From Porogramme epimiltina (taxonomy: Eukaryota > Basidiomycota > Agaricomycetes > Polyporales > Polyporaceae): a stretch of DNA of 64,000 nt. The stretch is from the NCBI GenBank assembly GCA_900155495.1, contig FTLJ01000163.1, forward strand, positions 1-64,000. Direction: 5' to 3'. Below are positions 909 through 32,000 of the stretch, one piece after another; the first letter of the stretch is position 1; every line of letters starts with the position of its first letter. Under the pieces are notes generated by a model that worked only from the letters and a program-made list of their open reading frames with translations, had not been told where the DNA came from and did no database searches. The position numbers and the translations under genes were made by a program.

Positions 909-1407
909 CCACCTGAACGTACTGGTATGTACAGCTTGTTGTCCACTTTTTGCCAATGCCGACCTGGGACCAGATTTTGTGCTCAGAGTTATCTACTTCT
1001 ATGCGTCTCCGGGAACGGATCACGCCTTTTCAATTTCCAACCTCGCTCATACGCACCTAATTGGCGGTCTCATACGGCCGCGCCCACCCATTCGACGCCG
1101 GTTCGAATGTGACAAGCACTGCACTCCCTGAGGATCCTCCGCTACGGCGTTCCTTGATACGAAGTGCAAGATCCCCGGACCGCCCGGTTTGATGTGCACG
1201 AAAATCTCGCCCGGGCACACGGGGGACGGCTTCAGGTGCACCTCACCGGTTCCTCTTGTTCTAGCGAGAGTCTGACCTGCCGTCCACATCGCCTTCAAAC
1301 TTGCGCTTCAGTATAAATGTGCGCGACGGCGCATGGAAGGAACCTCATTGTGTCTCCCACTTTCCCCTTTCTCCTCAGCGTACACCTTTCATTTTCGTGC
1401 CTTTACG
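909..1407 (+). promoter_or_regulatory. Spacer and promoter of the first S28 peptidase gene (TATA box 1312-1318)
   Basis: No gene is seen here. A consensus TATAAAT lies at 1312-1318, about 90 bp before the ATG at 1408 and followed by a pyrimidine-rich leader, a typical core promoter layout for a strongly expressed fungal gene. Confidence 0.5.
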
Positions 1408-3524
1408 ATGGTGTTCGCAATCGCTTTGCTTTCGGCTCTTCTATTTACTCCCGTTGCTCTTGCTTCCCTATCGGTTGACTACGGCTGGGACCCAGTTCCT
1501 CACATTCCCTATATCGACGAGCCCGATGAGTCGAAGTCGGTTATCCACAAGACTACCCAACAGCAGCTTGCCTCGTATAAGACCACTTATTACTTCGATC
1601 AATTGGTCGACCACAACGACCCGAAGAAGGGCACATTCAAGCAGCGCTACTGGCACAGTTATGAGTTTTATGAACCAGGTATTCCCTTGTCCGCTCCTCC
1701 TTTGAATGTGACGAAAGCTCATGGCGGTGGTTCCAGGTGGCGCAATTATTCTATCCACTCCTGGGGAAGTCGACGCCTCAGGTACGCCCTCGTTTTCTAC
1801 TGCCGCCTTGGCGAAGTTATCCAACAGAAATACCCAGGTTTTACTGCATATCTTACGAACAAGACTATGAACGGCGCCATAGCCCAGGCCATGAACGGAT
1901 CCACAATCGTCCTAGAGCATCGCTTTTTTGGCGAATCGAACCCGTACCCCGACCTCTCCGTGAAGAGCCTTCAGGTGCACACGATTCAGCAGGCGATCAA
2001 CGACTTGGAGTACTTCGCAAAGAATGTCAAGCTCCCGATGCCCAACGGCGACAAGGTTCCCCCAGGGAAAGCTCCATGGATCCTTGTCGGGGGCAGCTAC
2101 TCGGGCGCGCTTACTGCCTACACCATGCACAAGTTCGTCCGCCAAGGCTCGTTGTCATTACCCGACTGACAATCAGCTCCTCGCACAGCAAGCCGGACCT
2201 TTTCCTCGCCGGATATGCCTCGTCGGCTGTAGTCCAGGCCATTGCGTGAGTCTTGGCGTGGTCATAATCGTTTACGTAGCTGATCGCATTCGCAGATCGT
2301 TCTGGGGCTACTTCGAGCTCATTCGCCAGAACATACCCGCCAACTGCTCGGCGGACATCGAAGCGGTGGTCAATCACATCGATTCCGTGCTCGGGACGGG
2401 TGACGAGTCCGCTATCCACGCAATGAAGTCGACCTTCGGACTCCAAGACATCGTTTATGTGGATGATTTCGCCGCAGCGAGTGCGTAATGCCTTCGTATC
2501 TAACGCCCTACGCGCTCACGGAGTGTCCCTCTTAGTGAAATATGTCTTCAATTGGTACCAGAATGACTATAAGACATTCGCACACTTCTGCGAGGCGCTG
2601 GAAGTCGACAACGGTCAGGTTGCTCCCAAGGAGGGGTGGGGTCTCGACCACACGATGAAGGCCTGGGGTAAATACTGGAATGAGACGTTCTATCCTATGG
2701 GTGCGTACCGAACAACTTGCGTAGGGAGATGCATTGACGCTGACGTCGTGCTGCTACAGTTTGCGGCACGCGTAACGCCGAGTGGGTGTTTCTGAGTTGC
2801 GATATTCTTTGCATATGCTCACACTCCCCCGCAGAACATGCTTAGGAGGCTCCCATAACCCACACCTGAGTCATTGGAACAACGTCAAAGCGCCGAACGC
2901 AGGCAGGGCTTGGAAATGGCTCCAGTACGTCACACAGCATGTGGTGGCTTTTCTCTTTGGTCTCATGCGGCCACCCGCAGGTGCAACGAGTTTGGGTTCT
3001 TCTCTGCGGGCGCACCCCAAGACCATCCCAGCCTTGTCTCCCGATTCCTCACTATCGAGCGGTCCGAGGTTGGTTTCGTGTCACCCTAGCCAAACGCACA
3101 TGCTGATGCTACACCTCCCTACAGCGCAGCTGCGACTACGACTTCCCAGGCGCCTTCCACGGCACGAAGCGGAAGAGTATCTTGAACGCGCTCGGCGTGA
3201 ACACCGCCTATGACGGGTGGGCCACGACCACCGAGCGCCTCATCTTCACGAACGGCCTCCGTACGTCCCCGCTCCTTTCCCTACCTTTCGTGTGTGCCGG
3301 CGGCTGATGCAAGGCGGCCCCCAGGTGACCCGTGGCGCGAGGCGACGGTAGGCGCGGATAACGTTAACCAGGCGCCGCAGGCGCTGCAGCACCGCGCGCT
3401 GCACGACGGTGGGCACTGCGCGGACCTCTTTGTCTCACACAGTGATCCGCACATGGAAGCGGTTCAGCAGAGCTCGCTCGAGGCCATGAGGGGCTGGTTC
3501 AAGGCGTGGAAGCCGACTGCGTGA
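1408..3524 (+). CDS. Serine peptidase family S28 (prolyl carboxypeptidase / dipeptidyl peptidase type), copy 1
   Basis: Eleven exons joined at GT-AG sites: 1408-1678, 1737-1781, 1838-2132, 2189-2245, 2296-2480, 2536-2700, 2760-2781, 2835-2924, 2981-3068, 3125-3260, 3325-3524; they total 1554 nt, giving 517 aa with no internal stop. The N-terminus (MVFAIALLSALLFTPVALA) is a signal peptide, so the enzyme is secreted. Family landmarks: YYFDQLVDH and F.QRYW near the start, the GGSYSGAL nucleophile-serine motif, the cysteine-bearing CNEFGFF block, DPW with the probable catalytic Asp, and a C-terminal His in HDGGHCADL. S28 enzymes cleave after proline; in wood-decay fungi they probably help digest extracellular protein. 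It forms a tandem pair with the next gene, with almost the same introns. Starting at 1408 puts the signal peptide at the N-terminus; the upstream in-frame ATG at 1333 would bury it. Confidence 0.93.
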
Positions 3525-19749: not shown

Positions 19750-22278
19750 AGCGCGCAGGTACGGCTCGCATGGGTATGTTGCAATGGTGAGTGCGGTCCA
19801 TGCAATTTTTATGTTCATACTCCCCCCGCTGACGTATGCCCTGTACGACAGATCCTCGGACGTTTACGCAAGCATGGTCTCGGTGGTTCGGATTGTGTCA
19901 CGGACGGCAATAGCGTTCACATCTCGGTCTCCTCAATATGTTATCGATGACTTGGCATGTTGCAATATTCACGCATCTTACACGGTGGACACCACGAAGA
20001 ATAGTTGACGGTCCCGGGGCTAGAAAAAGCCAAGGCACATGGAAAGGGTCACCCCCTCCATAGAGAGGTGTCGGACTCCGTGCTCCTCTCTTCCGTCAGA
20101 CTTGGCAGATAAAAACAACCCCGCTGCATGTGTAAGCTCGGCTGCAGTGTCTAATTTCCTCGTGTCACGGCTCTCCGTATCCGCTCGCCACTCGAAATGG
20201 CATTAGATGGCGCCACATCATTTCCAGGTGAGTGTTTATCGCGTTAGATGCCTGTTAATGACCTCGATTTTCCTCATATTCACATCCGCATCACACTGCC
20301 CATGCGCAACACGGTGCTTCGTCCGCAGCAGGACCCCCAACGATGACGTGACTCAGGCATACCTGTCTTGTCCTCAGCAAATACTTCCGGACAACGTCAA
20401 GTAATAGGCCGCCGGTCAGGTACTTGCCTGCACAGCCAAGCCCTATAGGCCCCTGTACGTCCTTTCTACACCCTCATTCCATTGCGCGGTCGATTTGGCG
20501 AGGTAGCCGATCGGGGCCCGCGCGAACACTCTGCCACACCGAGGACGAGTGTAGCTGTAACCCCGGTGCACCGATGTGGAAGCCAAGGGGCTTAGCATGT
20601 CATTCAGACATTATGCTCCCTCCGAGGACCCACACCTGCTGAAAGCTAGGATCATAGCCTTGGTATTGGGTGGGGCCTATCCGCTTCCACGGGTTCGGGC
20701 ATCAGCATCCAGCGGCGACGTTTGTGCGCCGCATGCTGTCCCGCGTCCCAGAACAGCTACAACGGGGCCAGTCCGAGGAGAGGCTCCCACTCCCACACCA
20801 CATAGCGCCGGATGTCTCGGAGCGAACCACCTGGTGCGCCCGCCGCTGCGGACCGGGTGCCCAGGTGGCTCGCTTCGACAGGCTTGCTGTGAGTCCGTGT
20901 CTAGTTGCGCGCTGTTATAGACCCAGATGTATCGCCCTCCGTCCTCTCTGGCCGCTCATTCAGACGTGGGGCGCAACTGCTCACACGACTCCTCCCAGCG
21001 CCGTTTGGCGTGCGGCGTCCAATCGAACAGTGGCATGGGAATGCGCAGCGGGTGTTGGTTGGGCTTGGGGCGCCGTGGGATGGGAGAAAATGTCGTCGCG
21101 GATCCGTGCCTGCGGGGCGAGGCAGCTGTCCGCCCACTAGGTACTCCGCCTGAGCGGTTGCAGTGCCTGAACAAATGCGGTCCCGATCAAACCGTTCGCC
21201 CATCCGGACTCGATGGAGGGCCAAGCCACGAGGCTCCTGGAGCACATGCAGTATTGTGGCAGTGCTACAGCGATATCGACGCGATTTGTTTTAGACTATT
21301 TGTCTTTCTAACTTGACCTTTTAGTACCTCCAGAGGCACCTCAGTACCCTCTCGAGACTTAATCCTGCTTCAAAGGCACATCAAACGACACGCTGTCGAG
21401 GTGTCTCGACGTGTCGAATGTAGGCGAACTTGCACGATTGGCGCACCGGGCCCCGTGGGAAGACATCGCTCGCGCTTCCGACACTCCCACCAGGCCAAAG
21501 TCCCACCACCCGCGCGCAGCGGGAACCTTGTACGGTGTTTGAGCAGCCAAGGAGTTGCGTGCTGCACCTGTGCGAACGCACAATCTTGTTTCATGCGGGG
21601 CGCTGCACTGATCCCGAGGCAGACAGAGCTCACATTTCCATTCCGGACGCAATCACGTCCCGGCTCCCATGTGAGCGGTGTTTATTCTATACAATGCGTT
21701 TCGATGCTAAGTCTTTCCCAGAGCCGTGAATGCGGGCTCTCTCCCACCCGTGGCCCCACCAGAACCTCGGTCGACCCGCTACAATGGCATGCTTGATAGG
21801 CATTCGAGGAGGTTTTGTCGAGTCGTTCGTACACATCGCATGCATTTCTGCGTGCTCCCCAGACCAAATTCAAAGTGCTTGGGGCGTTGAGTACGGGCGG
21901 TCGGTAAGGAAGTTTCGCGATCACCTATAATTAGCGATTTAAGCTTCCTCCCACAGAATTGCCAAGAGCGTAGGTTGGAGCTGCGAGACGTTGCTGCGAG
22001 CTCGTCTCCGCCGCGCGCGACCGCAAACGCATTCTCAGTGCCAAGATGATGCCCTCATTCGTCTCCGAGCATTGTTGGCGTGGACGCGACCCCTGTTCGA
22101 ATTTTAGAAGTCAGAGTGTGTCAGGATCTCTCGGCGTTCTCCTTCATCGTATAAAATCGAACTGTGCAGCGCCACCTCTCCCCAGCCTCTCAGCTCGAGC
22201 TTTGTGTCTTCGCCCTTAAAGCCTAACCAGCACTCTCAAGCCTTCAAGCGAACCCGCCATCTTCAACTCGCAGTCAAT
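19750..22278. other. Long intergenic region, 2.5 kb, no recognisable gene
   Basis: Many short frames on both strands overlap one another (for example around 20.6-21.3 kb) but none carries a domain, signal peptide or sensible splice pattern. The final ~130 bp are the promoter of the repeat-protein gene. It could hold a degraded element, a non-coding RNA or nothing functional. Confidence 0.45.
22150..22156 (+). promoter_or_regulatory. TATA box of the repeat-protein gene
   Basis: TATAAAA at 22150-22156, 123 bp upstream of the ATG at 22279, followed by a CT-rich leader; a textbook core promoter that suggests strong, regulated transcription. Confidence 0.6.
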
Positions 22279-24963
22279 ATGCAGTTCAAGAAGAACTTCG
22301 TCCTCTTCGTCCTCGCGGCGGTCGTTTCCTCCGTGACTGCTATCCCCGTAAGCGTGTCCTTGTCCCCGGAAAAGTACCCTCTCACTGACAAGCCTCGCAT
22401 AGCTCCCGGGAACCGACGTTGTCTCCGGTGCAAACGCCCTTGTCGACAAAGTTGGCATCGTCGACTTCCCCGTCCGTGGCCGGAGCCCGGTGACGGTGGA
22501 TCTTGCGGCTCGCCGCCACGGCTCCGGCTCTCGCGGTCGCCGCGAGGTACGTACTTGACTCCTCAGTGAGCTCTGTTCACTCACCTGATGCCCTTCAGCT
22601 TGAGGCCCGCCGTCACGGCTCGGGCTCGCGTGGCCGCGGCGACAGCCACACCCGCCGCGAGGTACGCTGGTTTTCGAAACGTGGCAGGCACCCTGTTAAC
22701 CAGATTCAATCACAGCTCGAGGCTCGTCGCCACGGCTCCGGCTCGCGTGGCCGCGGCGACAGTCACACCCGTCGCGATGTGAGTCCACCCAGGATGTCCG
22801 TTGTTTACAAAATCATTGATTAAAATCCCAGCTGGAGGCCCGCCGCCATGGCTCCGGCTCTCGCGGGCGCGGTGACAGTCGCAACCGCCGCGAGGTGCGT
22901 CTGCTTCGTACCCCCCAAACCTCAGAGACTGACGATATATCCGTAGCTCGAGGCCCGCCGTCACGGCTCCGGCTCGCGTGGCCGCCACAACAGCCACACT
23001 CGCCGTGAGGTACGTAGCCTTTCTAGATACCGCGCACAGACTTTTTACCGTATTGATCACAGCTCGAGGCTCGCCGCCATGGCTCTGGCTCTCGTGGCCG
23101 TGGGGACAGTCATGTTCGCCGCGATGTAAGTTATATCCAGTACTGTCCGACCCTAAGAGCTCATTCAAGCCGTCCGTTCAGCTTGAGGCCCGCCGCCACG
23201 GGTCTGGTTCTCGCGGTCGTCACAACAGCCACACTCGCCGCGATGTACGCTGAAGCCTCAAATTTCAGCGATATATTGAGCTAATGGATTTTGATATAGC
23301 TTGAGGCTCGTCGCCACGGCTCAGGCTCCCGTGGCCGTCGTGAGGTTCGTTCATGGACGCTGCTTCAAAAGGCTCTTGTACTCACATGACCCTCTACAGC
23401 TCGAGGCTCGTCGTCACGGTTCCGGCTCTCGCGGCCGCGGCGACAGCCACACTCGCCGTGACGTACGCTACCACCTATCCTTACCCTCTCCATCTGCTCA
23501 TGGGCCCTAAATATATAGCTCGAAGCTCGCCGTCACGGCTCCGGGTCTCGTGGCCGCCACAACAGCCACACTCGCCGCGACGTAAGTTATGATGAGGTGG
23601 AAGTTCGGCTCCGGCTGACGGAATATCTTCTATATAGCTCGAGGCGCGTCGCCACGGATCTGGCTCTCGCGGTCGCCACAACAGCCACACTAGGCGCGAC
23701 GTGAGTGCTTTCCTGATACCGTGACGGTACGTTGGCTCACGAGGCTCGTCTTCAGCTCGAGGCTCGCCGTCACGGCTCTGGCTCCCGCGGTCGCGGTGAT
23801 AGTCGCAACCGTCGTGAAGTAAGCTCTGTCTTGGTAATACTTAGCCATACGAGGTCCTCATTTCACTATCCAGCTCGAGGCTCGCCGCCACGGCTCAGGC
23901 TCTCGTGGCCGCCGCGATGTATGTCAGATGTCTCCTCCTTGATGACGCTTCAGCTCATTACAATCTTGCTCAGCTGGAGGCCCGCCGACATGGCTCTGGC
24001 TCTCGGGGCCGCCACAATAGCCACACCAGGCGTGAGGTGAGACTCCGCCCTCATCGCGCCAGTAAATCCTTTAACTAATATGTTCAATGCAGCTGGGGGC
24101 GCGTCGCCACGGTTCCGGCTCTCGTGGTCGCGGTGACAGTCGCGGCCGTCGTGATGTACGTGTACCCGGGTTGCCATTACATGACCATGTATCCTCACAA
24201 TATCGTTTTAGCTCGAGGCCCGGCGCCACGGCTCTGGCTCTCGCGGTCGTCACAACAGTCATACTAGGCGCGATGTAGGCTTCCAGGTTTATGATTTATC
24301 TTGCGCAGCAGCTGACATACACACCAGCTCGATGCTCGCCGCCACGGTTCTGGCTCCCGCGGCCGTCGCGACGTGAGTAGCCTTGCCTCTGCGTCGTCTG
24401 AAACCTCGTCTCACTCTAGATGTACAGCTCGAGGCTCGTCGCCATGGATCTGGCTCTCGTGGCCGCCACAACAGCCACACCCGTCGCGATGTAAGCGAAG
24501 CACCCTTACATCTCGAGTCTCCGATGGCTCATTAGGATGATCAGCTCGAGGCTCGCCGTCATGGCTCTGGCTCACGCGGCCGCGGCGACAGCAGGAACCG
24601 TCGCGACGTAAGTTCTAATTTCCGCCCATCATGCTGTTCATTTTCTGACAACTTTACCAGCTTGAGGCACGCCGCCATGGGTCCGGCTCTCGCGGCCGGG
24701 GTGACAGCCGCGGTCGTCGCGATGTAAGCAACCTACACAACTAGCTCGTCGGGCCCCCACGCTCATCCTGTCATGCCAGCTTGAGGCCCGCCGTCACGGC
24801 TCGGGCTCTCGTGGACGTGGCGATAGCCGCGGCCGCCGCGATGTAAGCACACTCCTGAAGCCGTCTCCCTGAACAGCAAAGCTCACGCCGTCCTTTCCAG
24901 CTCGAGGCACGCCGCCACGGCTCGGGCTCGCGGGGTCGCGGTGACAGCCGCAACCGCAAGTGA
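22279..24963 (+). CDS. Secreted Kex2-type repeat precursor, 23 exons, 22 repeats (one exon per repeat)
   Basis: Spliced by hand into 23 exons totalling 493 aa plus stop. Exon 1 (22279-22347) is a signal peptide (MQFKKNFVLFVLAAVVSSVTAIP). Exon 2 (22403-22546) encodes a 33-residue leader (LPGTDVVSGANALVDKVGIV... to ...RSPVTVD) plus repeat 1. Each later exon encodes exactly one repeat: LEARR, core HGSGSRGRGDSHT or a variant, then RR and D or E. Exons are 63 nt (21 aa) or, for repeats 8, 13 and 17, 45 nt (15 aa). All 22 introns are GT-AG, 52-58 nt and phase 0. Arg-Arg pairs bracket every core, so Kex2-like cleavage followed by carboxypeptidase trimming would free up to 22 small basic peptides and a short acidic DLEA/ELEA spacer. 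There are no Cys and no aromatic residues in the repeats. Function unknown; could be signalling, antimicrobial, wall-binding or metal-binding. Confidence 0.9.
22502..24963 (+). repeat. 22-copy exon-intron tandem repeat array (period ~118 bp)
   Basis: Repeat starts: 22502, 22599, 22716, 22832, 22947, 23063, 23182, 23300, 23400, 23519, 23638, 23756, 23874, 23974, 24093, 24212, 24328, 24428, 24545, 24661, 24780, 24901. The unit is one 63 bp exon (45 bp for copies 1, 8, 13, 17) plus one 52-58 bp intron. The exons keep the protein sequence while varying at third positions (Arg as CGC, CGT, CGG, AGG; Ser as TCC, TCT, AGC, AGT). The introns show little obvious similarity to each other apart from splice signals. 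This pattern suggests old duplications under selection for the peptide. Confidence 0.92.
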
Positions 24964-29017: not shown

Positions 29018-32000
29018 TCAGCTCTTCTTGGCGCCCTTCGCCTTCGCTGGGGCTGCAGAGGCCTTGCCTTTGCCTTTCTGCTTAGATGGCTTGATGAGGC
29101 TGTCGCGGGACACGTCATCGTCGTCTTCTTCCTTCTCGTCCTCTGCCTCGGGGACTTCGTCGTCGACCTGGTCGTCACATTAGCACATGCAGCGCCCCGG
29201 TTGTTGGTGCTGGGCAGAGGGCACTTACATCGAACGCCTCCTCGAGGTCGGGAGCGGGACCGGCCGCCGCAAGCTTCTTCGGGGCCTTGCCCAACGCCTC
29301 AGCCTTGTGGAAAGCGATAGGGTGGTCGCGCGCGTTGTACTTCTTCGTGAACGACGTCTTCGTCGCCGTGGAGATCTTCTTGAGCACCTGCGTGTCCACA
29401 TTGTCGCCTACGCCGAGCTCCACGATCGTGTCCCAATCTTCGCGCGATAGGAAGTACTCGTCCATGAACTCGATTGTGTCGTCCACCATGCTCTACGAGT
29501 TTGGGATATGAATGAGCGGGCTACGTGAAGCAATAGAAAAGGTGGAGGACGTACTGCGCCCTTCTCCATCAGCGGCTGGACCAGGTGCGGGAAGAGTGAG
29601 GGGATGTATGATTGCCGAATTTCGGACTTATCGCCCGAAACGCGCAGTCGCATCTTCGCCTGCACCTCCGTCAGCTGGCGGCTGAGCTTCGACTGCTTCG
29701 AGTTTTGCCCAAGCCATCTATGGTAGGGTCAAGATCGGAACCACGTACGGGGACGGAAAGGCACCTACTGTGGGAAGCTCATCGCGTTCGGTCCGCCGTA
29801 CCCTGCACCCATGCCGTAGAGGAATGATGCTGGGCGGACCGTAGAGCACACTGCGTGAAGCGGCATAAGAGACCAATATTGGTTCGGGCTGCGCATAACC
29901 AGATTAGTGGATATACAGAGTAACGGGTTTAGGAAATACGGACCCGTGAATGAGACTGTCAACGATGTCGCCGTCCGACAACGATCGAGCAGCCTTATCC
30001 ATGAGGCTGAGGTGCTTTAGGACCTTCTCAGGGCCGTCTGCTTGTCGCGCACGCTGCGGCTGCGTCTTCAAGTAGTTCTCCTACCAACCTCACGCATCAA
30101 ACCTTACGTTCGGAGGTTATCAACAAGTAACGCACCTGCATGAAAAGCGGAACGAAGGATGGGTCGTGGAAGTACATCTCGATCTTGTCGCCGAGAGTTT
30201 CGCGCGATGTCGGTGCGAACATCTGCGGGCCGAGCATCTTGTTGATGACACCAAACGGCGTCATGACGGCGTACTTCTCGTTCATCTTCACCATGGCCTT
30301 GCCTTCATCGAAGTCCATCGTGGTGCTCGAAAGCCGCCATGTCGAGAGCATGTTCAACACCTGTCGGATGTCGGACTGCGCGCCCTCCACAAGCTGGTCC
30401 ACCACATTTGCGGGAATTTTCATCTTCTCTTTGAACGCGATGCTCAGAATACGCGAACGAATAGCAGCAGCCTCGGGCCGCCTGAATGTCAGGTTGAATG
30501 TTGCGTTCAAGAGGGGCTTAAGCTTCTGTGCGCCGCGGTCGTTCGCAATACAAATGATTGGGATCTTGCTCTTCTTGATTAGTGCGGTTAACGCACCGAC
30601 GCCGCCGCGGTCTCCGGCGGACATGCCGTCAACTTCATCCATGATCAAACACGACTTGTCGGTAATCGTGACTCCGGCAGCATTCGTTTTCTGAAGGACA
30701 GCACACCTGTTAATCAGGCGGCGGCTACAATAACGAAAGTAACCCACCTTCCCGCCACCCATCCAGCCATCTAGTGACGTGTTCATGATGTTGGTACTGT
30801 TCTATATGACCGGCACTTCAGTTCGGGACATTCATGCGGGAATGCCGTAGACGTACCTCAACCAGCTTCTTGCTCCGCGCATCACTCGCATTAAGCTCAA
30901 TGGGTGTGAATCCGGCCAGCTTCGCACATAGGTGTGCACTCGTCGTCTTTCCGATACCGGGAGGACCTGTGATCATGACTGCGCGGAACACGTTCATACC
31001 CTCCTTGCCCGGCTTCTTGAAGTCGGACTTGAGACTTGCGTCGAAGGCATTCAACCAACTCTGCAGTTTCTCGATCTGGCCCTTGTTTCCGCAGATTTCT
31101 TTGAGTGTCTGCGGCGCATACCGGTCCGTCCACAACTGGCCACCCGTATCGGGCTTCGCACTAGGGGTGCAAAGGAATGTTTGAGAATGGCAACGAAACA
31201 ATGATACGGTGAACTCACCCTCCAGCAGAGGTGCTGGCTTTGGCGGCCTGCTTCTCCCGCTGCTCCATCTCCTTCGCGTTTTGCCTGATGGCCTCCTGCT
31301 CCTGCTCGAGCTTCTTTCGGGTCTTCTCGTCCAGCTTGCTACTGTCTACCTTGCGCGTCCTAATGAGATCCAAGAAACCATCTTCGTCCAGCGTCTTCAG
31401 CTTGTTTTTCTCGATAGCCTTGAGCTTACTCGGACCAGCGTCCGCGCCAAGGACTACATAAGATGTTTTCGACGATGGTTGTCCGACGACACGACTGGAG
31501 GGAAGTGGGGAATGTTAAATAACATCACAATGGATAATTGAGCCCACACACCCGCCGTAGCGCTTCGCAAGCCCAATCGCCTCGTCGCGGGACAGGCTAC
31601 TCAACTCTCCGGTGAAAACGAATGAGAGACCGAAGAGACAATTGGTATCTTCGGGTATAGGAATATCCTTAGATCCAGGATTAGAAGGACCTGCGCGGCC
31701 TGCCTTCATGGCGTACCAGCTGCGGCAGACAGTCAGCTAGAAGACACCCATATTCTGGCGAAGACGCACTTGGGCTTCTTCGCAGGTTTATCATCCGCCT
31801 TATCGTTCGACTTCACAGCCGCAGCCGGTTTCTTCTCCTCTGCCTTGGGCTTGGCAGCGGCTTTAGCTGGAGTCGACTTGACTGGTGTGGACGTCGTAGG
31901 CGCCCTTTTGGCAGGAGCTTGAGCCTTGGACTTGCCTTTGCCCTGCTTGATCACTTTGCCTTTCTTGATCACCTCTTCATCGTCCTCGTCCATCTCGAAG

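What the first reader, a model, noticed from the sequence alone, without database searches (positions are those of the whole stretch)
22279..24963. A secreted precursor with 22 RR-bracketed peptide repeats, one exon per repeat
Signal peptide plus 22 near-identical units whose cores (HGSGSRGRGDSHT and variants) are bracketed by Arg-Arg. This is the plan of Kex2-processed repeat precursors such as fungal mating factors, but the cores are unlike the ones I know: no Cys, no aromatics, strongly basic, His/Gly/Ser/Arg only. The predicted set of up to 22 short peptides in one gene, with a leader of 33 residues, could be a new family of signalling, antimicrobial, wall-binding or metal-binding peptides.
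Basis: partly seen in the sequence, partly recalled or inferred. Interest (0 to 1): 0.95.

Follow-up and report, generated by a model that had tools for sequence, protein, structure and literature searches.

The report
Hidden mushroom peptide precursor, exon-per-repeat
A fungus, likely of the mushroom class, carries a gene of 22 near-identical units, nearly all predicted to lie on small exons of their own, that are likely secreted and cut apart into short basic peptides; related sequences occur in five orders of mushroom-forming fungi, where all seven public gene models that were tested appear to slip out of frame inside the repeats.

Summary
Window 22279-24963 reads as 23 exons and 22 GT-AG introns (52-58 nt, all phase 0), giving a 493-residue precursor: signal peptide, 38-residue pro-segment, 22 units. 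It is a real gene: in the 11 residues shared by all 22 units no first or second codon position differs, while third positions differ in 52% of comparisons and introns are nearly unalignable. The units are old and kept by selection, not recently copied. Two partial, decaying copies elsewhere in the genome align to it through exons and introns. I file it as a Kex2-processed repeat protein (KEP), a class named in 2019, in a family I did not find in held papers; relatives occur in five orders of Agaricomycetes. One exon per unit is seen in many relatives but not all (9 of 14 testable ORFs). In all 7 named models tested (of 16) the frame appears lost inside the array, yet 7 of 16 keep leader and three or more units, so surveys may hold some. 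Cleavage at Arg-Arg is predicted; the genome holds a kexin. Function is unknown; an extracellular signal is my best guess.

The parts
22150..22155 (+). TATAAA box, 129 nt before the ATG (possible core promoter)
   Evidence: sequence; function inferred
22279..22347 (+). exon 1: signal peptide MQFKKNFVLFVLAAVVSSVTA plus IP
   Evidence: conserved leader in relatives; no signal-peptide program was available, judged by eye
22403..22546 (+). exon 2: pro-segment (with VRGRSP motif) and unit 1 (short core HGSGSRG)
   Evidence: RGRSP in 6 of 16 named and 8 of 24 unnamed relatives
22599..23244 (+). exons 3-8, units 2-7, 63 nt each, with introns between
23300..23344 (+). exon 9, unit 8, short 45-nt unit (core HGSGSRG)
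23400..23818 (+). exons 10-13, units 9-12, with introns between
23874..23918 (+). exon 14, unit 13, short unit
23974..24274 (+). exons 15-17, units 14-16, with introns between
24328..24372 (+). exon 18, unit 17, short unit
24428..24842 (+). exons 19-22, units 18-21, with introns between
24901..24963 (+). exon 23, unit 22, ends NRK-stop
   Evidence: similar RK ends in P0007 and P0018

Best explanation
This gene encodes, through 23 predicted exons, a 493-residue repeat precursor that is predicted to enter the secretory pathway and to be cut by kexin after its Arg-Arg pairs, likely releasing up to 22 short basic peptides that begin with His-Gly and likely act outside the cell as a conserved fungal signal. 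Shown by sequence: the reading frame, splice-site pattern, 22 units, purifying selection on the units, relatives in five orders of Agaricomycetes, and a kexin in the same genome. Inferred from established KEP biology: signal-peptide removal, kexin cuts after RR, trimming of the leftover RR by Kex1, release of acidic D/E-LEA tetrapeptides as spacers. Guess: that the HG-peptides are a self or neighbour signal rather than a toxin or a wall component. Also inferred: because nearly every unit sits on its own 3n, phase-0 exon between diverged introns, the array would resist recombination and slippage, and skipping an exon would change peptide dose only, not the frame.
For: Gene structure. Codon-position test: 0.0 / 0.0 / 0.519 differences over 22 copies of ARRHGSGSRGR; introns nearly at shuffled similarity. 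Copies on C701 and C536 align to the gene through exons and introns at 79-86% in four main blocks, so the array order is older than these copies; their first- and second-position changes are 0.04-0.21. Relatives with the same leader and units. In 100 distinct HG units of window and 35 database proteins, the residue before HG is R in 98; the pair is RR in 84 and PR in 12; PR mostly marks the first matched unit (12 of 20 examined), RR the later ones (71 of 73). Kexin: a catalytic fragment in the own genome matches yeast kexin 1ot5 at E 2e-56, with a P-domain in the same 3.2-kb locus. RR cleavage of an agaricomycete KEP is shown in print in a yeast host, and KEP peptides were found in mushrooms (PMC9769878, Results parts 1-2 of 3 read). 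In 24 unnamed ORFs of relatives, Q precedes the unit start in 20 of 23 and V follows its end in 26 of 27, the mark of CAG| and |GT phase-0 junctions.
Against: No transcript or peptide was seen. RR is, from recall, a weaker kexin site than KR. A free HG end is not proven. C-side RR is not kept in all relatives (e.g. P0015, P0025), so the peptide's C-end varies. Six KEP knockouts in Coprinopsis had no phenotype and synthetic peptides no antibacterial effect (PMC9769878), so an important signal role is not the default. Copies on C701 and C536 look broken, so extra copies were dispensable. The HG residues were part of the search expression and cannot count as conserved on that basis; units without HG (first unit of P0010 and P0016) were missed by it. 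One exon per unit is not universal: 5 of 14 unnamed ORFs with two or more units (P0009, P0010, P0013, P0015, P0025) show no intron mark between them. The 24 ORFs include near-identical ones, so the counts are not independent.
Confidence: 0.68

Rival explanations
1. The protein is secreted but stays whole or is only partly cut: an Arg/Gly/Ser-rich, strongly basic repeat protein that binds acidic wall or matrix polymers.
For: After the signal peptide the precursor has pI 12.0 and net charge about +85; repeats need not be released to act; no peptide data.
Against: R directly before HG in 98 of 100 distinct units, with P as the main substitute at the position before it, and acidic D/E-LEA spacers, fit a cleavage site better than a plain basic polymer. 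Kexin is present.
Confidence: 0.17
2. The released peptides bind copper or another metal through a free N-terminal histidine (and further His in some cores), as a secreted chelator.
For: A His at the predicted new N-terminus in all 22 units of the window; HGSGSRGRHNSHT has three His.
Against: In relatives the match pattern fixed the His; inner His are missing in Cubamyces cores; the first unit of P0010 has Q in that place; no metal-related Pfam domain in 20 flanking ORFs (20 of the 200 ORFs of at least 110 residues listed).
Confidence: 0.08
3. The GRGDS stretch mimics the animal integrin ligand and disturbs adhesion of cells of grazing animals.
For: GRGDS lies in 11 of 22 cores; RGDS occurs in 10 of 16 named relatives as annotated.
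Against: GRGDS as an integrin ligand is recalled. RGDS is missing in 6 of 16 named relatives as annotated, among them Steccherinum, Psilocybe and Mycena, and in 11 of 22 units here, so it is not what the family keeps.
Confidence: 0.04
4. A ustiloxin-type RiPP precursor whose cores are cyclised by UstYa-like (DUF3328) proteins.
For: Same precursor plan; the genome has 20 UstYa matches.
Against: None of the 20 lies on contig C133, and the cores have no Tyr, Trp, Phe or Cys.
Confidence: 0.03

Closest known systems
KEX2-processed repeat proteins (KEPs) of fungi and Agaricomycetes (PMC9769878, PMC6339444, PMC7329392; abstracts and named sections read)
   Same: Signal peptide, short repeats between dibasic sites, linear cores predicted, occurrence in several basidiomycetes.
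   Different: Cores here consist of His, Gly, Ser, Arg with Asp, Asn, Thr or Val, without the C-terminal Trp or the Tyr-rich profiles those texts describe; mostly one exon per unit, a feature not mentioned in the two survey texts (0 occurrences of intron or exon) nor, by the word exon, in PMC9769878 (intron 1, exon 0).
Ascomycete alpha-pheromone precursors (MF-alpha)
   Same: Repeated peptides with leader, kexin sites and acidic spacer residues (recalled).
   Different: No WxW-type core; no X-Ala/X-Pro Ste13 track directly before the core; the spacer here is cut off by a second RR. Comparison from recall and PMC7329392 section 6.
Dikaritins / ustiloxin-type RiPPs
   Same: KEP plan.
   Different: No UstYa on the contig, no aromatic core residue.
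Human polyubiquitin gene UBC (PMC10809524; passages and start of abstract seen)
   Same: Tandem polyprotein gene in which splice boundaries coincide with unit boundaries.
   Different: UBC uses dual-purpose splice sites and variable inclusion; here each boundary is a separate 52-58 nt intron. Ubiquitin arrays undergo concerted evolution (a title in its reference list); here the units are not homogenised.

Membership tests
KEX2-processed repeat protein (KEP) | N-terminal signal peptide | tested here: met
   Basic n-region, hydrophobic stretch FVLFVLAAVV, V-T-A cleavage motif, conserved leader in relatives; judged by eye, no predictor available
KEX2-processed repeat protein (KEP) | 3 or more repeats of at least 8 residues between dibasic sites (Umemura criterion) | tested here: met
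   17 cores of 13 residues between RR pairs
KEX2-processed repeat protein (KEP) | Kexin present in the organism | tested here: met
   Catalytic fragment E 2e-56 to yeast kexin and one P-domain match on C599; the tail ORF had no PDB match
KEX2-processed repeat protein (KEP) | Peptides actually released by kexin | not testable with these tools
   Needs peptidomics
Alpha-pheromone precursor | MF_alpha Pfam domain / Trp-containing pheromone core | tested here: not met
   First 212 of 493 residues: no Pfam family at E up to 1; no Trp in the whole protein
Dikaritin (ustiloxin-type RiPP) | UstYa (DUF3328) gene near the precursor | tested here: not met
   0 of 20 genome matches on C133
Dikaritin (ustiloxin-type RiPP) | Aromatic core residue for ring closure (recalled) | tested here: not met
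   No Tyr, Trp or Phe in the cores

The most novel reading that the evidence does not exclude
An ancient peptide-hormone family of mushroom-forming fungi, marked by a free His-Gly end, that proteome surveys largely missed because its array is split by introns into one exon per peptide; the introns act as insulation that freezes a 22-fold array against homogenisation and makes peptide dose tunable by exon skipping.
Probability: 0.25. Interest if true: 0.8.

Novelty: new variant of a known kind. Interest (0 to 1): 0.55.

Why it matters
KEP catalogues were built from annotated proteomes. If gene models often lose the frame in arrays of 45-63 nt exons, members of a conserved peptide family can stay invisible although their genes are sequenced. 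The gene also offers a case of a tandem precursor that is old, under selection unit by unit and not homogenised, unlike polyubiquitin, so the idea that introns insulate repeats becomes testable by comparing intron-split and intron-less members of this same family.

Tried and rejected
Rejected: chance repeat or non-coding array (codon-position test); recent amplification (introns nearly at shuffled similarity: mean score -3.4 against -4.6 for shuffles, best pair 7.5 against a shuffled maximum of 5.5, so slightly above shuffles, which shared splice signals may explain); cyclised RiPP; known RNA family (none in the window at gathering scores); Pfam family (first 212 residues); membership of Umemura's widespread type G-1 (listed for Trametes, Lentinus and others), which that text calls high in Tyr.

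Led nowhere: Pfam on 20 ORFs of the window (20 of 200 listed) gave RFC1-like lid and S28 peptidase above cut-off, and SH3 and PBP1_TM below it; no partner gene. Weak own-genome matches on C81 and C519 (E 0.19 and 3.3) showed no unit on reading. A first frame-slip test against the window's own shifted frames (100 shuffles each) exceeded its shuffles for P0001, P0002, P0003, P0012, P0026, P0033 and P0035 in at least one frame, and failed for P0005, P0006, P0019 and P0021. A codon-compatibility test replaced it: of 13 stretches, all 7 from named models beat all 200 shuffles; of 6 from unnamed ORFs one did (P0026), the others were reached by 4, 11, 39, 48 and 61 of 200 shuffles. Stretches of P0019, P0022 and P0023 were chosen by eye; the other 9 of 16 named models were not tested. 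The leader rule mis-scored P0004 (no family leader on reading) and P0017 (has it); on reading, 11 of 16 named models keep the leader, and 7 of 16 keep leader plus three or more in-frame units (unit counts), which a survey could catch. That last point made me lower the novel case from 0.30 to 0.25 and interest from 0.56 to 0.55. Each protein search scored only about 7990 candidates, so the list of relatives is not complete, and rows of A1 or A2 among the hits match by construction. Paper searches for the cores or for exon-per-repeat KEPs found nothing fitting; supplementary tables could not be read, so a listing there is not excluded.

Full report
What is there. Positions 22279-24963 read as 23 exons separated by 22 introns of 52-58 nt, all GT-AG, all phase 0; 20 of 22 introns are not multiples of three, whereas every exon is. 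The spliced product has 493 residues: signal peptide (about 21), pro-segment of 38, then 22 units ARR-HGSGSRG-(RGDSHT / RHNSHT / RGDSRN / RGDSRG / RGDSHV or nothing)-RR-[DE]-L-E-A, the last ending NRK. Counts: 11 units with RGDS, 7 with RHNS, 4 short. From exon 3 on, each 63- or 45-nt exon is exactly one unit, the boundary lying in the spacer between D/E and LEA.

Is it real. Over all pairs of the 22 copies of ARRHGSGSRGR, codon positions 1 and 2 differ in 0% and position 3 in 51.9%; distance does not fall for neighbouring units. Over the 18 full-length units the figures are 9.5%, 9.5% and 50.3%, the replacements lying mostly in the variable second half. The introns align to each other barely better than shuffles. 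So the units have long been separate and are under strong selection for their protein sequence. Arg codons in exons 2-23 are CGC or CGT in 93% against 55% in nine other long ORFs of the window that are themselves unverified, which, with a TATAAA at 22150, suggests high expression (inference).

Copies in the genome. A protein search of the own genome listed 31 matches; besides the window, clusters lie on C701 and C536, with two chance-level matches on C81 and C519. The clusters copy the gene's middle and 3' part, 79-86% identical including introns in four main blocks; the leader was matched only in the window. First- and second-position changes in the four blocks are 0.038/0.084, 0.214/0.119, 0.124/0.100 and 0.121/0.133, third-position changes 0.121, 0.143, 0.169 and 0.233, intron changes 0.162, 0.156, 0.189 and 0.197; two blocks have exon indels of 7 and 12 columns. 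So the coding change is below the intron change in three of the four blocks, which is what one constrained and one free lineage would give, but far above the zero seen in the shared core of the live units. I read the copies as decaying and 5'-truncated. They show that the unit order here predates those duplications. The C701 copy is parted by about 6.7 kb that holds a hAT-like transposase ORF (label recalled).

Relatives. Three protein searches gave 40 proteins, 16 of them named, from Cubamyces, Trametes, Lentinus, Steccherinum, Sanghuangporus, Sphaerobolus, Ramaria, Psilocybe, Gymnopilus, Mycena, Lentinula and Paramarasmius. Orders were looked up for six species: Polyporales, Hymenochaetales, Agaricales, Geastrales, Gomphales. 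E-values where the hit was not in the query alignment: Lentinus 1e-53, Sanghuangporus 5e-11, Psilocybe 1e-9, Sphaerobolus P0016 4e-7, Mycena 7e-6, Lentinula 1e-4, Paramarasmius 3e-4, Ramaria 1e-20 and 1e-5. Hits with E above 0.001 are short unnamed ORFs, bar P0030 (Sphaerobolus); their membership rests on the unit sequence. Shared: a leader like MxFKKNFxxFVxAAVLSxxxAIP, a pro-segment motif RGRSP in 6 of 16 named (5 of the 6 Polyporales) and 8 of 24 unnamed, and units opening RR-HG, or often PR-HG for the first. Cores vary: HGDSKERGRSHD in Steccherinum, HGDSHG in Psilocybe, HGSGSRGRSGSRS in Cubamyces.

Exon per unit in relatives. In 24 unnamed ORFs, mostly on contigs under 5 kb, Q stands before the unit start in 20 of 23 cases and V after its end in 26 of 27, against 2.4% Q and 8.1% V in those ORFs. 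Q and V are what unspliced CAG| and |GT junctions in phase 0 give. Of the 14 such ORFs with two or more units, 9 have this intron mark between units and 5 have none (P0009, P0010, P0013, P0015, P0025), so some relatives, or some parts of their arrays, put two or three units on one exon. Named gene models suffer: in all 7 tested of 16, hidden out-of-frame [RK]RHG[SD] codons exceed all 200 shuffles. P0021 keeps one unit in frame and P0003 two, below the three repeats that the Umemura survey demanded; but 7 of 16 models keep leader and three or more units (unit counts, leader on reading) and may be in its tables. Results of the weaker tests are in Tried and rejected.

How it likely works. Kexin acts in the Golgi on dibasic sites, and agaricomycete KEPs with RR sites are cut and secreted (PMC9769878, Results parts 1-2 and Discussion read). 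The genome has a kexin; that paper speaks of three kex2 genes in agaricomycetes, while my search, which matches genes exon by exon, found one P-domain. Predicted products: HGSGSRG-type 13- and 7-mers after Kex1 trimming, and DLEA/ELEA spacers. PR in place of RR is a tolerated kexin site from recall (killer toxin). Function is not shown; a family kept across five orders argues for a general role, and a signal is my choice over wall binding or metal binding.

Place among the known. It meets the sequence criteria of a KEP, and fails those of alpha-pheromones and dikaritins (membership table). The architecture resembles polyubiquitin UBC (PMC10809524, passages only) in aligning splice and cleavage boundaries, but works by ordinary introns. 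No held paper contains the strings HGSGSRG, RRHGDS, HGDSHGR, HGDSGERG or HGDSRGR; supplements were out of reach.

Noticed in passing
L017 (G000:C701:41500-51400), about 43.1-49.7 kb of C701: A hAT-like transposase ORF (recalled signature) lies between the two halves of the broken copy of the gene.
   Followed up: partly
L018 (G000:C536), about 24.07 kb of C536: A reverse-transcriptase-like frame lies close to the more decayed copy; label by eye only.
   Followed up: no
window 1276-2166 +: Part of a serine carboxypeptidase S28 gene (Pfam).
   Followed up: no
window 30100-30801 -: RFC1-like AAA lid domain, so probably the large replication factor C subunit gene.
   Followed up: no
own genome, contigs C326, C226, C316, C223, C293, C403 and others: 20 UstYa (DUF3328) matches, several in pairs on one contig, suggesting dikaritin-type clusters elsewhere in this genome.
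   Followed up: no
P0029, P0031, P0032, P0034: Unnamed relatives with a further unit type LEARRHGSGSRDRRST, with an intron mark between units.
   Followed up: partly
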